Part shown: one piece after another, positions 298 through 6,738 of the stretch | Layout: each line of letters starts with the position of its first letter | How positions within the stretch are numbered: the stretch's first letter is position 1 | DNA from: Campylobacterota bacterium | Lineage (GTDB): Bacteria; Campylobacterota_A; Desulfurellia; JAADFJ01 | Assembly: GCA_013152955.1 (NCBI GenBank) | Contig: JAADFJ010000088.1 | Location: forward strand, 1-46,918 | Direction: 5' to 3' | Length of the DNA stretch: 46,918 nt | The notes under the pieces: model-generated | The model's database searches: none | Seen by the model: the letters and a program-made list of their open reading frames with translations, nothing else | What the model was told of the DNA's origin: nothing | Translations under genes and position numbers: made by a program

Positions 298-1241
298 TTC
301 ATCTGCTTCCTTTTGAAGAGCCGATAGCCGAGCTTGATAAAAAAATAGAGGAACTTGAGGCTCTGCAGGGTAAATTTGATATAAATAATGAGATAGAGAT
401 TATCAGAAAACGACGCAATCAATTGTTGAAAGAGCTTTATAATAGTCTTACTCTAAGGGAGCGCATTCAGATTGCAAGGCATCCCGACAGACCGCATACG
501 GATTTTTATATTGAGCAGCTTATAGAAAATTTTACAAAACTCTCCGGCGACCGACTGTTTAAAGAAGATGAGGCGATAGTTGCAGGAATTGGCAAATTCA
601 GCGGCATGTCTGTAGCTGTCATAGGTCATCAAAAAGGCGAGACTACCAAAGATAATTTGAAATATAACTTTGGAATGGCTCGTCCCGAAGGATATAGAAA
701 AACTCAAAGAATAATGGGTCTGGCCGAGAAGTTCAGGCTGCCTGTAATAAATTTTATCGATACACCGGGAGCGTATCCCGGTCCTGATGCAGAAGAAAGA
801 GGTCAGGCAGAGGCTATAGCAATGAATCTCTATAAGATGTCATCACTTAAAACTCCTATAATTTCCATTATAACAGGAGAGGGGGGATCAGGGGGTGCAC
901 TTGCAGTAGCGGTAGCAGACAGAATTGCAATGCTTTCGTATTCGATATACGGGGTTATATCTCCCGAAGGATGTTCATCCATTCTATGGAGATCAGCCGA
1001 TCATGCAGAACAGGCGGCGAGAGCTATGAAAATCACCGCGAAAGACCTTTTGCAGTTTGGAATTATTGATGAAGTTATAGACGAACCTCCGGGCGGAGCC
1101 CACAGAGATAAGCTGCAGACAGCCAAGAATATTGCTGCTTTTATCAAAAAATCTTTAAAAGAACTGAAATCTTTAAAATCCGATAAAGTAGTAAAGGCAA
1201 GATATGCCAAACTTCGCAAGATAGGCGGCGATCTATTATGA
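294..1241 (+). CDS. accA: acetyl-CoA carboxylase carboxyltransferase subunit alpha
   Basis: ARHPDRPHTDFYIE, FGMARPEGYRK, FIDTPGAYPGPDAEERGQAEAIA, GEGGSGGALA motifs. Confidence 0.97.
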   Translation: MIHLLPFEEPIAELDKKIEELEALQGKFDINNEIEIIRKRRNQLLKELYNSLTLRERIQIARHPDRPHTDFYIEQLIENFTKLSGDRLFKEDEAIVAGIGKFSGMSVAVIGHQKGETTKDNLKYNFGMARPEGYRKTQRIMGLAEKFRLPVINFIDTPGAYPGPDAEERGQAEAIAMNLYKMSSLKTPIISIITGEGGSGGALAVAVADRIAMLSYSIYGVISPEGCSSILWRSADHAEQAARAMKITAKDLLQFGIIDEVIDEPPGGAHRDKLQTAKNIAAFIKKSLKELKSLKSDKVVKARYAKLRKIGGDLL

Positions 1242-2308
1242 AAAAGATAAGAGAAGAAATCAATCGCATAGATAAAGATATTGTAGAATTTTTAGATAAG
1301 CGGGCAAAATTGGTAAAAAAAATAAGTGAGGTCAAAAGAAAGGAGAGATCTCCCATATTTGCTCCTGAACGGGAAAAAGTTGTTTTTAACAGAGTGATGC
1401 AATTTTCCGAGGGATCGTTTCCGCAGGAAAGTCTAAAATTTATCTTCAGAGAAATCATATCTGCATCTATTCTGCTGGAAGGTGCTCTTAAGGTAGCATA
1501 TCTAGGACCTGAGGCAACATTCAGCCAGGAAGCGGCAATTTCTCGCTTTGGACTTAGTGCTAAATATTTTCCGCAGAATGATATCGAGCAAGTATTCTCG
1601 TCTGTCCAATCCGGCAGATCTGATATTGGAGTTATTCCTATTGAAAACTCAAATGAAGGCATTATAAATGATTCGCTGGATATTTTTCTTAAAACTAAGT
1701 CAAAGATAGTTTCAGAGATTGTACTTAAAGTTCACCATCATCTTTTAAGTCAGGAGAAATCTATTTCAGAAATTAAAAAAATCTATTCTCATCCATACGC
1801 ATTAGCACAGTGTAAAAAATGGATAAAAAATAATCTCAATGTAGAAACAATAGATGTTGCCAGCACAGCTAAAGCTGCAAAACTTGCATCCGGCGAACCC
1901 CAATCCGCTGCTATAGCATCTATAACGGCTGCTGATATTTATCATCTTAACCTTCTTGCTCCAAATATTGAGAATATGTCCGACAATGCAACCCGCTTTT
2001 TAGTTATCGGCAACTTCGACGCTAAACCATCAGGATCAGATAAAACATCTATACTTTTTTCAACCAGGAATAGAATAGGATTGCTATACGATGCACTGTC
2101 AATTTTCTCAAGATGGGGTATTGATTTAACCAGGATTATTTCACGACCTAACAAAAATGATCCTTGGAGCTATATTTTTTATATTGATTGTTACGGGCAT
2201 ATAAACGATGAAAATATCAAGAGAGCAATGGGCGAACTTGAGATGCAGTCAACAATTTTTAAGCATCTTGGTTCTTATCCTGCTCAAAGGCTGGAAAACA
2301 ACAAATAA
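1238..2308 (+). CDS. pheA: bifunctional chorismate mutase / prephenate dehydratase
   Basis: N-terminal chorismate mutase helix (IREEINRIDKDIVEFLDKRAKLVKKISEVK), then VAYLGPEATFSQEAA, IPIENSNEGIINDSLD and a C-terminal ACT region. Confidence 0.95.
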   Translation: MKKIREEINRIDKDIVEFLDKRAKLVKKISEVKRKERSPIFAPEREKVVFNRVMQFSEGSFPQESLKFIFREIISASILLEGALKVAYLGPEATFSQEAAISRFGLSAKYFPQNDIEQVFSSVQSGRSDIGVIPIENSNEGIINDSLDIFLKTKSKIVSEIVLKVHHHLLSQEKSISEIKKIYSHPYALAQCKKWIKNNLNVETIDVASTAKAAKLASGEPQSAAIASITAADIYHLNLLAPNIENMSDNATRFLVIGNFDAKPSGSDKTSILFSTRNRIGLLYDALSIFSRWGIDLTRIISRPNKNDPWSYIFYIDCYGHINDENIKRAMGELEMQSTIFKHLGSYPAQRLENNK

Positions 2309-2323: not shown

Positions 2324-3421
2324 ATGAAAGTTAGAAATTGGGTTAAAAATTTGGTTACATACAAAGCCGGTAAACCTATTGCACATGCAGCAGGAGAAAT
2401 AGGTATGGCTGCCGATGAGATTGTAAAACTTGCTTCAAACGAAAACAGCTTAGGATCGTCGCCTCTTGCAGTAGCTGCATTGAAAGAGAATATCAATACC
2501 TTTTACAGGTATCCGGATGGCTCAAATTATGATTTTATAGGCAAGCTGTCCGGTAAGTATTCCGTTTTGCCGGAGCAGATTGCAGTAGGCAACGGTTCTG
2601 ATGAAATTATCAATCTTATATATTCTGCATTTTGCCAGGAAACCGATGAGGCGATTATGGCATTTCCATCATTTGCAGAATATTTGCTTATTGGAGCAGT
2701 TCACAGAGTTAATGTTCTCAGAGTGCCGTTGAAAGAATTCAAAACCGATCTTTATGCAGTTAAGGATGCAATTAATGAAAACACAAAGGTCATCTTTTTG
2801 AATTCTCCGAATAATCCGACAGGCACCATCATCAAGCATGACGAATTAATGGACTTTATGAAGAATATACCTGAGGATATTCTCGTGGTTATGGATGAGG
2901 CGTATTACGAATATGCGACAGGCAAACCCGATTTCCCCGAAACAATAGATTTTATACGCAAGTTTGATAATTTTCTGATATTGAGAACATTTTCGAAAGC
3001 ATACGGTCTTGCAGGATTAAGAATAGGTTACGCAATAGGAGATAAAGAGATTATAGATGCCATAAACCATGTAAGGCAGCCTTTCAATGTAAATAAAGCT
3101 GCCCAAATTGCCGCTTTTGCCGCATTGGATGACACTGAATTTTTATCCAAAGTAAGATTCATGGTAGAATCCGGTATGACTTATCTCAAATCTGAATTTG
3201 AAAACATGGGAATAGAATATACGGAAAGCTATGCCAATTTTCTGCTGATAAATTTAAAAACGGATGCAGAAAACATATCTGATAAACTGCTTCAAAAAGG
3301 TATAGTTGTCAGGAGTATGTCAGGATACGGCCTTAAGGAGTTTATGAGAATAACAGTTGGCAACGAAACCGAAAATGAAAGATTTATAGCAAGTCTAAAA
3401 TCTGTGTTAAACGAGGAATAG
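2324..3421 (+). CDS. hisC: histidinol-phosphate / aromatic aminotransferase
   Basis: KLASNENSLGSSPLA, NSPNNPTGT, DEAYYEY, RTFSKAYGLAGLRIGYA. Confidence 0.92.
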   Translation: MKVRNWVKNLVTYKAGKPIAHAAGEIGMAADEIVKLASNENSLGSSPLAVAALKENINTFYRYPDGSNYDFIGKLSGKYSVLPEQIAVGNGSDEIINLIYSAFCQETDEAIMAFPSFAEYLLIGAVHRVNVLRVPLKEFKTDLYAVKDAINENTKVIFLNSPNNPTGTIIKHDELMDFMKNIPEDILVVMDEAYYEYATGKPDFPETIDFIRKFDNFLILRTFSKAYGLAGLRIGYAIGDKEIIDAINHVRQPFNVNKAAQIAAFAALDDTEFLSKVRFMVESGMTYLKSEFENMGIEYTESYANFLLINLKTDAENISDKLLQKGIVVRSMSGYGLKEFMRITVGNETENERFIASLKSVLNEE

Positions 3422-4441
3422 ATGATGATTATTGTAATGAAACGCAGCGCAACCAAAGAACAGGTTGACGCACTAATCAAAAGAATAAATAGATGGGGCT
3501 TTGAAACTCATCTTTCCAAAGGTGACAATAAAACCGTAATTGGTGTGATAGGTAAAGGGGAAACGCTGCAAAGCAGAGCATTTCTTGCTTTTGAAGGTGT
3601 CGAAAATGTTATGCAGGTCAATAAACCGTATAAACTGGTCAGCAGAGAGTTTCATCCTGAGAATACCGTTATAGATGTAAAAAACGCTAAAATCGGAGGC
3701 AAAAAGATAACCGTTATGGCCGGACCATGTTCGGTTGAAAACGGAGATATGGTTATGAAGGTTGCAGAATCGGTTTCCGCTAACGGTGCTACAATATTGA
3801 GAGGCGGTGCGTTCAAACCGAGAACAAGCCCTTATTCTTTTCAGGGTCTTGGAGAAGAAGGCTTAAAAATTCTCAGAGAATCCGCCGATGCAACCGGAAT
3901 GAAAGTTATAACAGAAGTTATGGATGTAAGAGACGTAGAACTTATTGAAAAATATACCGATATTTTTCAAATAGGCGCACGTAATATGGCAAATTTTAGT
4001 CTTTTAAAGGAAGTTGGAAAAACAAAAAAGCCTGTTATGCTGAAACGCGGAATGTCTGCTACGCTTCAGGAGTTTTTGCTTGCCGCAGAATATATTATGA
4101 ACGAAGGAAACGAAGAAGTAATTTTATGCGAAAGAGGCATAAGAACATTTGAGCAGTATACGAGAAATACTTTGGATCTTGCCATTGTTCCTGCAATAAA
4201 AGAGCTTTCTCATTTGCCTATTGTTGTTGATCCCTCGCATGCAACCGGCAGAAAACATCTTGTTATACCTATGGCACTTGCTGCTATAGCTTCCGGAGCT
4301 GATGGTATTATGGTTGAGGTGCATCCAAATCCGGCTGAAGCATTGTCCGATGGTGTGCAAGCTCTTCTTCCATCTGATTTTAATACTATGATGAAGGCAA
4401 TAGAAATAATATCAAAAGCAGTTGGCAGAACAATTTCGTAA
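3422..4441 (+). CDS. aroF: 3-deoxy-7-phosphoheptulonate synthase (DAHP synthase, AroF/type I-beta, N-terminal ferredoxin-like domain)
   Basis: MAGPCSVEN, LRGGAFKPRTSPYSFQGLGEEGL, VDPSHATGRK. Confidence 0.96.
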   Translation: MMIIVMKRSATKEQVDALIKRINRWGFETHLSKGDNKTVIGVIGKGETLQSRAFLAFEGVENVMQVNKPYKLVSREFHPENTVIDVKNAKIGGKKITVMAGPCSVENGDMVMKVAESVSANGATILRGGAFKPRTSPYSFQGLGEEGLKILRESADATGMKVITEVMDVRDVELIEKYTDIFQIGARNMANFSLLKEVGKTKKPVMLKRGMSATLQEFLLAAEYIMNEGNEEVILCERGIRTFEQYTRNTLDLAIVPAIKELSHLPIVVDPSHATGRKHLVIPMALAAIASGADGIMVEVHPNPAEALSDGVQALLPSDFNTMMKAIEIISKAVGRTIS

Positions 4442-5875
4442 GTGTTTTCAAAAGTTTTTATAGTTGGGTTGGGACTTATCGGAGGTTCTTTAGCTTTAGA
4501 TATAAGAGAACATAAGCTTTCTGATAAAATAGTAGGGTATGATAGTGATCAATCCAATCTGAACGAAGCTGTGAGGCTTGGCATTATAGATGAAGCGGCA
4601 CCTTTGGAATCAGTCGGTCAAAGTGACTTTGTAGTTTTGTCGGTTCCGGTTGGCCAAATACCTAATGTATACAAAAAGATTGCACCAAAATTAAACGATA
4701 AAGCAATTGTTGTTGATACCGGAAGCGTTAAGAAATATATAATAAATCGGATTAACAGAATTGAAAACAGTCAGCATTTCGTGCCATGTCATCCGATTGC
4801 AGGAACCGAAAACAGCGGACCGTCGGCAGCTGTACCTGGCTTGTTTAAGAAAAAAAATGTTATTATTACAACAGAAAAAAAAGACAGCAGAATTGAAAAG
4901 GTATCGGAATTGTGGAGATCGGTTGGGGCAACTATTGTATTTATGAATGCGGAAAGGCACGATGAGATCTTTGCCGCAGTGAGTCATCTTCCGCATATAG
5001 CTGCGTATAGCCTTGTTGATTCCGTGATTGTAGACGGGCATCTGCCTCAATACATAGGGGGCGGCTTGGCGGATTATACCAGAATTGCCGCAAGTTCTCC
5101 GTCAATGTGGAACGATATCTTTATTTATAATAAAAAAAACCTGACCAAATCAATCGAAAAATACGAGAGAAGTCTGAATCGTCTGAAAGAATGCATAGAA
5201 AATGAGAGAGGAGTGTTGGAATTTCTTTCGGCTGCAAGAGATGCGAAATTAGAAAATATTGAAGATAAGCAGATCATTATTACCGTTGATGGTCCTTCGG
5301 GTGCGGGAAAAAGCAGCGTAAGTCAGAGGATTGCGGAGAAACTTAACTTTTTATATATAGACAGTGGTGCGCTATATAGAGCCAAAGCGATAATCAAAGA
5401 TATTGATGAGATGCGGCTCAAATTCAGAAACAGCGGCGGCAAATGGGATCTTTTTTATGGAGGCAAGAGCATAGAAGGCGATATACGAGGCGAAAAGGCA
5501 GCTGTTGCCGCAAGCAATATTGCCAAAGATTTAAAAGTAAGGGAAAACGTAAACGAAATGATATATCGGATGGTAGGTAAACGATCCGCAATTGTTGAAG
5601 GGAGAGACGCAGGAACTGCCATATTTCCAAATGCCGATTTGAAGCTGTTTTTGGATGCTCCGCTTGAGGTGCGTACTAAAAGAAGAGCAAAGGATGATAA
5701 GTTCGCAACCAAAAAGCAGTTGAGTGATAGAGATATGCAGGATATGAGCAGAGCTGTTTCGCCGCTTTCTATGGCAGCTGATGCCGTATATCTGGATACG
5801 ACTGCAAGTTACGACAGAGTTTTAAAAATGATTAATTCAATTATTCGCAATACTCTCAAAAAATCTGTCAGCTAA
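4442..5875 (+). CDS. prephenate dehydrogenase - cytidylate kinase fusion protein (GTG start)
   Basis: N-terminal TyrA (VFIVGLGLIGGSLALDI, CHPIAGTENSGP, HDEIFAAVSHLPHIAAY) continues in frame into CMK (IITVDGPSGAGKSSVSQRIAEKLNFLYIDSGALYRA, VEGRDAGTAIFPNADLKLFLDA). Confidence 0.93.
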   Translation: MFSKVFIVGLGLIGGSLALDIREHKLSDKIVGYDSDQSNLNEAVRLGIIDEAAPLESVGQSDFVVLSVPVGQIPNVYKKIAPKLNDKAIVVDTGSVKKYIINRINRIENSQHFVPCHPIAGTENSGPSAAVPGLFKKKNVIITTEKKDSRIEKVSELWRSVGATIVFMNAERHDEIFAAVSHLPHIAAYSLVDSVIVDGHLPQYIGGGLADYTRIAASSPSMWNDIFIYNKKNLTKSIEKYERSLNRLKECIENERGVLEFLSAARDAKLENIEDKQIIITVDGPSGAGKSSVSQRIAEKLNFLYIDSGALYRAKAIIKDIDEMRLKFRNSGGKWDLFYGGKSIEGDIRGEKAAVAASNIAKDLKVRENVNEMIYRMVGKRSAIVEGRDAGTAIFPNADLKLFLDAPLEVRTKRRAKDDKFATKKQLSDRDMQDMSRAVSPLSMAADAVYLDTTASYDRVLKMINSIIRNTLKKSVS

Positions 5876-6738
5876 TGAGACTTATACTTTCAAACAACAT
5901 CGGATTTTGTTATGGTGTCAAAAGAGCAGTTGGTATTGTTGATGAACTTTCGTCTAAATACAAGGTAAAAACATTCGGGCCGCTGATTCACAATCCTCAA
6001 ATGATTGAGAGATTGAGGAAGAAAGGTGTTCAGACGATTAATAGTGTAAATGATAAGACAAATAAGGATTACAAAATTGTTATAAGATCTCATGGAGTTG
6101 GCCCCGATACATATAATTTACTGAATAAGATTGGAATTGATTATATAGATGCAACTTGTCCCTTTGTCAAGAATGCCCAGGATTTTGTTAAACGAAAAAG
6201 TAGAGAAAAGATCACTGTTTTGATTTTTGGAGATAAGCAGCATCCTGAGGTTAAAGCAGTAATGTCGTATGCAAAAGATATTGTAGTTGCCGAATCGATC
6301 GAAGAGGTGAGGGCGCTTCCTAATTTTAAAAAGATTGCCGTGGTTTCCCAAACAACACAGTCGAAACAGCTATTCAGACAAGTTGTGATGGTGCTTCTTG
6401 ATAAAGCTGCCGAGGTTGATATATATAACTCTATATGCGGAGCAACCGAAAGCAGACAGACAGAAGCCGAAAAGCTGTCTTGTATGGTTGACATTATGCT
6501 TATTGTAGGCGGCAAAAACAGTGCAAATACAAGAAGGCTATACACCGTATGTCAAAATCATTGCGAAACATGCTATCATATTGAGACCGTTCGAGACATC
6601 GGTTTTGATTTGTTTCCAAGAAACAGCACAATAGGGCTTATTACAGGGGCATCAACCCCTGATTTTATAGTTGATGAAATAATAGATGCTATGGAACGTG
6701 AGTTCGGGACAGATCTATCGGTTGAAGCACTAAATTGA
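5875..6738 (+). CDS. ispH: 4-hydroxy-3-methylbut-2-enyl diphosphate reductase
   Basis: NNIGFCYGVKRAV, DATCPFV, NSICGATESRQ (three conserved Cys), HGVGP. Confidence 0.96.
   Translation: MRLILSNNIGFCYGVKRAVGIVDELSSKYKVKTFGPLIHNPQMIERLRKKGVQTINSVNDKTNKDYKIVIRSHGVGPDTYNLLNKIGIDYIDATCPFVKNAQDFVKRKSREKITVLIFGDKQHPEVKAVMSYAKDIVVAESIEEVRALPNFKKIAVVSQTTQSKQLFRQVVMVLLDKAAEVDIYNSICGATESRQTEAEKLSCMVDIMLIVGGKNSANTRRLYTVCQNHCETCYHIETVRDIGFDLFPRNSTIGLITGASTPDFIVDEIIDAMEREFGTDLSVEALN

What the first reader, a model, noticed from the sequence alone, without database searches (positions are those of the whole stretch)
4442..5875. TyrA-CMK fusion enzyme replacing the expected tyrA-aroA-cmk array
A single 477-aa ORF joins prephenate dehydrogenase to cytidylate kinase. 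Flanking order pheA-hisC-aroF-[tyrA-cmk]-ispH matches the well-known arrangement in which aroA sits between tyrA and cmk. AroA-CMK fusions are familiar; direct TyrA-CMK is not one I recognise. The CMK half is compact: about 15 residues are missing after GALYRA, and the segment before SDRDMQD is shortened, relative to remembered E. coli CMK. This suggests aroA was excised, fusing its neighbours.
Basis: partly seen in the sequence, partly recalled or inferred. Interest (0 to 1): 0.62.

Follow-up and report, generated by a model that had tools for sequence, protein, structure and literature searches.

The report
Tyrosine-enzyme and CMP-kinase genes fused
In a small group of uncultured deep-sea-vent-related bacteria, two neighbouring housekeeping genes (one for making tyrosine, one for recycling the nucleotide CMP) have become a single gene for one two-headed enzyme; the fusion is real, shared by a whole genus and has arisen more than once in bacteria, but it looks like an ordinary operon-neighbour fusion and not an excision of the gene that used to lie between them.

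Summary
Window 4442-5875 (+) is one uninterrupted 477-aa ORF: prephenate dehydrogenase (TyrA, residues ~1-270), a ~6-residue linker, and (d)CMP kinase (CMK, ~278-470). It is not an assembly artefact: both other held genomes of the genus (92% and 64% identical) carry the same fusion. It is the only TyrA and only CMK match in each. Both halves keep their catalytic residues and are under purifying selection, so the best reading is a working bifunctional TyrA-CMK enzyme.

The proposed origin (aroA excised, joining its neighbours) is not supported. Separate tyrA and cmk genes of the class already lie side by side, typically overlapping by 8 bp out of frame, with aroA elsewhere. Only a frame-changing indel at that overlap was needed. 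The compact CMK is partly inherited too: the class is already about 8+5 residues shorter than E. coli, the genus a further 7+3.

The same architecture occurs in at least three other lineages outside this phylum. AU tests reject an origin shared with two of them, so it arose at least twice. TyrA-AroA, AroA-CMK, PanC-CMK and CMK-Der fusions have NCBIfam models; none appeared for TyrA-CMK. New variant of a known kind; modest interest.

The parts
4442..5875 (+). tyrA-cmk fusion gene, 477 aa, GTG start, TAA stop
   Evidence: same ORF in G001 and G002
4442..5254 (+). TyrA (prephenate dehydrogenase) part, residues 1-271: nucleotide-binding domain, dimerisation domain and C-terminal helix; catalytic/ligand residues S95, H117, H185, R214
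   Evidence: roles of the equivalents from PMC2954222
5255..5272 (+). linker, about 6 residues (NIEDKQ), poorly conserved; no ATG/GTG/TTG in frame here
5273..5872 (+). (d)CMP kinase part, residues 278-477: P-loop 283-290, CMP-site residues, shortened NMP-binding and lid stretches
1238..2308 (+). pheA (chorismate mutase-prephenate dehydratase-ACT), operon neighbour
2324..3421 (+). hisC-type aminotransferase, operon neighbour
3422..4441 (+). DAHP synthase (aroF); its TAA stop abuts the GTG start of the fusion
5875..6738 (+). ispH (LytB); its ATG overlaps the last base of the fusion's stop codon

Best explanation
A bifunctional enzyme made as one chain. The N-terminal half is a TyrA dehydrogenase (oxidative decarboxylation of prephenate to 4-hydroxyphenylpyruvate with NAD+), expected to dimerise through its C-terminal helical domain; the C-terminal half is the cell's (d)CMP kinase, tethered to the end of the TyrA C-terminal helix by about six residues. 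Shown: the continuous ORF, both domains, conserved active-site residues, purifying selection on both halves, and the same fusion in all three held genomes of the genus. Inferred: that one polypeptide accumulates uncleaved, that both activities are present, and that the domains work independently. Origin (inferred from comparison): in the class ancestor tyrA and cmk were adjacent with overlapping ends, cmk in the +1 frame; in this lineage an indel upstream of the tyrA stop brought the two into one frame. It was kept in the genus because it is harmless or gives stoichiometric co-expression, not because the two reactions are linked in metabolism.
For: Domains over cut-offs; CMK half over the TIGR00017 equivalog cut-off, 161.7 vs 135.55 bits. 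S14, K18, S36, Y40, R41, S101, R110, R131, D132, R181, D185, R188 of E. coli CMK all identical; D129 is E, as in some class relatives. Arg110, Arg131 and Arg188 are each needed for activity in the Yersinia enzyme (PMC3603445). TyrA S95, H117, H185, R214 align with A. aeolicus S126, H147, H217, R250 (equivalents described in PMC2954222; the A. aeolicus numbers H147 and R250 are from my own knowledge). G000 vs G002: dN/dS 0.17 (TyrA half), 0.18 (CMK half); the linker is freer. One TyrA/CMK match per genome in G000, G001, G002. 8-bp out-of-frame overlap in most unfused class genomes. aroA elsewhere. In a concatenated tree the fused genus is sister to the unfused class rows.
Against: No expression, protein or enzyme data. 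All three genomes of the genus are incomplete assemblies (87-94%), so a second tyrA or cmk could be missing, though not plausibly in all three. Internal initiation or proteolysis cannot be excluded: G000 and G002 have an in-frame GTG, and G000 a TTG, about 25 codons before the P-loop next to a purine-rich stretch. The shortened lid and NMP-binding stretches could alter CMK kinetics. The structure prediction failed (pLDDT 31), so domain arrangement is untested.
Confidence: 0.85

Rival explanations
1. The fusion arose when aroA was excised from a tyrA-aroA-cmk array, joining its neighbours directly.
For: tyrA-aroA-cmk order exists elsewhere, e.g. G038, and tyrA>aroF(EPSP synthase)>cmk is the ancestral proteobacterial order proposed in PMC1173090.
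Against: Unfused class genomes have tyrA and cmk adjacent without aroA; aroA is elsewhere in 24 of 25. Directly adjacent tyrA>cmk is also found in other phyla (G041, G580, G1134, G1105, G1088, G1193).
Confidence: 0.04
2. Assembly or sequencing artefact: a missed frameshift or stop between two genes.
For: Draft metagenome-type assemblies; relatives have the genes out of frame by one base.
Against: The same fused ORF with a conserved linker length in G000, G002 and G001 at 92% and 64% identity; silent changes dominate across the whole ORF; similar fusions in other lineages.
Confidence: 0.01
3. Only one half works: the other is a decaying or regulatory appendage.
For: CMK half shortened by 15 + 8 residues relative to E. 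coli; in P. syringae one domain of a TyrA-AroF fusion was lost (PMC1173090).
Against: All CMP-site residues intact, dN/dS 0.18 for the CMK half, no other CMK match in three genomes.
Confidence: 0.05
4. The ORF is continuous but CMK is also, or mainly, made separately by an internal start or by cleavage of the linker.
For: In-frame GTG (G000, G002) about 25 codons before the P-loop, preceded by AGAGAGGA.
Against: That start is absent in G001, which has only a TTG elsewhere; spacing to the purine-rich stretch is too short; it would start inside the TyrA C-terminal helix.
Confidence: 0.12

Closest known systems
TyrA-AroA (EPSP synthase) fusion, NCBIfam NF011381; pseudomonad tyrA-aroF supraoperon fusion (PMC1173090)
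   Same: TyrA fused at its C-terminus to the product of the next gene of the same supraoperon; TyrA half scores 259 bits to this model.
   Different: Partner is CMK, not EPSP synthase; no AroA domain present; score far below the 902-bit model cut-off.
AroA-CMK fusion, NCBIfam NF008816
   Same: CMK at the C-terminus of an aromatic-pathway enzyme encoded by the upstream neighbour.
   Different: Upstream partner is TyrA; no AroA domain.
PanC-CMK (NF010004) and CMK-Der (NF007071) fusions
   Same: CMK fused to a metabolically unrelated protein.
   Different: Different partners; in CMK-Der, CMK is N-terminal.
TyrA-CMK fusions found here in G111, in five genomes of family f414, and in G1083 (other phyla)
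   Same: Same domain order in one ORF; in G111 also followed by ispH.
   Different: Unrelated linkers, full-length CMKs; shared origin with the window genus rejected for G111 (AU p 0.028) and for f414 (p 0.018).

Membership tests
TyrA dehydrogenase | PDH_N and PDH_C domains over Pfam cut-offs | tested here: met
   135 and 85.7 bits; best solved relative A. aeolicus prephenate dehydrogenase (2g5c), E 4e-59
TyrA dehydrogenase | catalytic Ser, His and substrate-binding Arg conserved | tested here: met
   S95, H117, R214 (plus H185 of tyrosine inhibition) align with S126, H147, R250, H217
TyrA dehydrogenase | prephenate versus arogenate preference; NAD versus NADP | not testable with these tools
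   needs an assay
(d)CMP kinase (TIGR00017) | score over the equivalog cut-off | tested here: met
   161.7 bits alone, 157.5 in the whole protein, cut-off 135.55
(d)CMP kinase (TIGR00017) | P-loop lysine and CMP-binding residues | tested here: met
   12 of 13 positions checked are identical to E. coli; D129 is E
(d)CMP kinase (TIGR00017) | complete NMP-binding and lid domains | tested here: inconclusive
   both stretches shortened, partly shared with the class; model confidence too low to judge
AroA-CMK bifunctional protein (NF008816) | EPSP synthase domain | tested here: not met
   no EPSP_synthase match in the ORF; model score 98 vs cut-off 943
TyrA-AroA bifunctional protein (NF011381) | EPSP synthase domain | tested here: not met
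   257 bits vs cut-off 902, only model positions 3-281 of 733 matched

The most novel reading that the evidence does not exclude
The fusion is kept because it couples the two activities, e.g. tyrosine or prephenate binding to the TyrA dimer tunes CMP kinase (or forces it to dimerise), linking aromatic amino-acid supply to pyrimidine nucleotide recycling; the repeated appearance of TyrA-CMK would then reflect selection and not only gene adjacency.
Probability: 0.08. Interest if true: 0.55.

Novelty: new variant of a known kind. Interest (0 to 1): 0.3.

Why it matters
It adds a domain combination to the fusions of the aromatic supraoperon that I found neither in the passages read of the 2005 TyrA fusion survey nor among the NCBIfam fusion models hit, shows it arose at least twice, and gives a clean case in which the unfused overlapping ancestor can be read in relatives. 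It also warns that automatic annotation may label this protein with only one of its two functions, and that fusion-based ('Rosetta stone') inference could wrongly predict a functional link between tyrosine synthesis and CMP kinase.

Tried and rejected
aroA excision as proximate cause. Assembly artefact. Apparent fusions that are not: G055/L028 (stop TGA between the genes), G580/L108 (TAA, AGGAAG, ATG between), G1134, G1105, G1133, G1128, G1088, G1193 (one in-frame stop between adjacent genes). AlphaFold2 with two sequences gave pLDDT 31, pTM 0.22: discarded, no fold search made. Single-domain trees were too weak to separate fusion origins (AU p 0.26 and 0.43); the concatenated tree was better. 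G111, f414 and G1083 cannot be shown to be independent of each other (AU p 0.58 for G111 + f414, 0.11 for G1083 + f414). Paper searches for TyrA-CMK fusion found nothing relevant beyond PMC1173090.

Full report
What is there. The ORF 4442-5875 (+) runs from GTG to TAA without a stop and encodes 477 aa. Pfam finds PDH_N (17-166), PDH_C (170-256) and Cytidylate_kin (280-466), each far over its cut-off. The gene sits in a tight same-strand run: accA, pheA (chorismate mutase-prephenate dehydratase-ACT), a hisC-type aminotransferase, DAHP synthase, the fusion, ispH, ribF. The DAHP synthase stop abuts the GTG, and the ispH ATG overlaps the last base of the fusion's stop.

Is it real? The window is contig C88 of a 1.51-Mb, 88%-complete draft. 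The two other held genomes of the genus carry the same fused ORF at 92% (G002) and 64% (G001) identity, with the same gene order. The G002 contig has the length of CAJVZA010000007.1, labelled 'uncultured Hippea sp.' (Campylobacterota, Desulfurellia) from data set DRR093004, a hydrothermally inactive deep-sea massive sulfide deposit of the Southern Mariana Trough (PMC6946796). Between G000 and G002 both halves evolve under purifying selection (dN/dS 0.17 and 0.18) while the 11-codon junction is freer (simple NG86 counts). In each of the three genomes the fusion is the only match to either half.

Do both halves look functional? TyrA: S95, H117, H185 and R214 align with the Ser, His, His and Arg used in catalysis, ligand binding and tyrosine inhibition in studied TyrA proteins. 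CMK: all CMP-site and P-loop residues examined are present, with one Asp-to-Glu change also seen in some unfused class members. Arg110, Arg131 and Arg188, each essential in Yersinia CMK (PMC3603445), are conserved.

How did it arise? The class as held has 25 genomes and is also the whole phylum in this collection. Outside the fused genus, wherever the junction could be read, tyrA and cmk are separate and adjacent, cmk lies in the +1 frame, and the ends overlap by 8 bp (ATGnnTAr) in most cases, sometimes more. In G016 only the start of cmk is on the contig, and G024 was not read. An aroA gene above the curated cut-off is found elsewhere in 24 of 25 genomes; in this one it lies on contig C26. 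Excision of aroA is therefore not what joined the genes; a small frame-changing indel at an existing overlap is sufficient. The exact mutation cannot be read, because the junction has diverged. The halves are inherited with the class: the TyrA tree and the better CMK tree keep genus and class together (weak support), and in the concatenated tree the fused genus is sister to the class rows (SH-aLRT 88).

Is it unique? No. Scans over roughly 1,200 genomes (strict score limits, so a lower bound) gave uninterrupted TyrA-CMK ORFs in G111 (its TyrA cut by the contig end; followed by ispH and, by my reading of the ORF, rpsA), five genomes of one family (G1148, whose start is cut by the contig end, and G1150-G1153) and one genome of another family (G1083) of a different phylum. 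These have full-length CMKs and unrelated linkers. On a concatenated TyrA+CMK tree of 56 genomes the fusion label needs four changes, at least three forced by well-supported branches. Holding the window genus together with G111 or with the five-genome family is rejected (AU p 0.028 and 0.018). The other three are not shown to be independent of each other. So at least two origins, perhaps four. In several lineages the two genes are adjacent and in frame with a single stop between them, one substitution from fusion, which explains recurrence without a functional reason.

What is known. Song et al. 2005 (PMC1173090) list TyrA fused with AroQ, EPSP synthase, HisHb, ACT and REG, and note that partners are operon neighbours; in the passages read there is no CMK fusion. 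NCBIfam returned models for TyrA-AroA, AroA-CMK, PanC-CMK and CMK-Der, and none for TyrA-CMK among the matches shown (25 of 36 shown for the whole protein, complete lists for the halves). Literature searches in an open-access library found no description, which is weak evidence, as most subscription papers are not held.

Verdict. A true, genus-wide, very probably bifunctional TyrA-CMK fusion enzyme, a new variant of a well-known kind of operon-neighbour fusion. The most interesting open possibility, regulatory coupling between the halves, is untested and I think unlikely.

Noticed in passing
L093:3341-4945 (G044): A CMK-IspH (LytB) fusion in one 535-aa ORF: Cytidylate_kin 28-238 and LYTB 261-528. 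Another neighbour fusion from the same operon.
   Followed up: partly
L142, L143, L145 junctions (G1150, G1152, G1151): The TyrA-CMK linkers of this family are translated tandem repeats of about TTCAATC, giving NLQSSIFNLQS; the linker looks like former intergenic repeat DNA read through.
   Followed up: partly
window 3422-4441 versus L037, L038, L043: The DAHP synthase gene between hisC and tyrA is present in all three genomes of the window genus but no match was seen there in the three class relatives examined, G004, G005, G006.
   Followed up: no
L035 (G060:C1:720609-722317): Two CMK-like matches close together in one genome, in open frames of 404 and 439 aa; not resolved.
   Followed up: no
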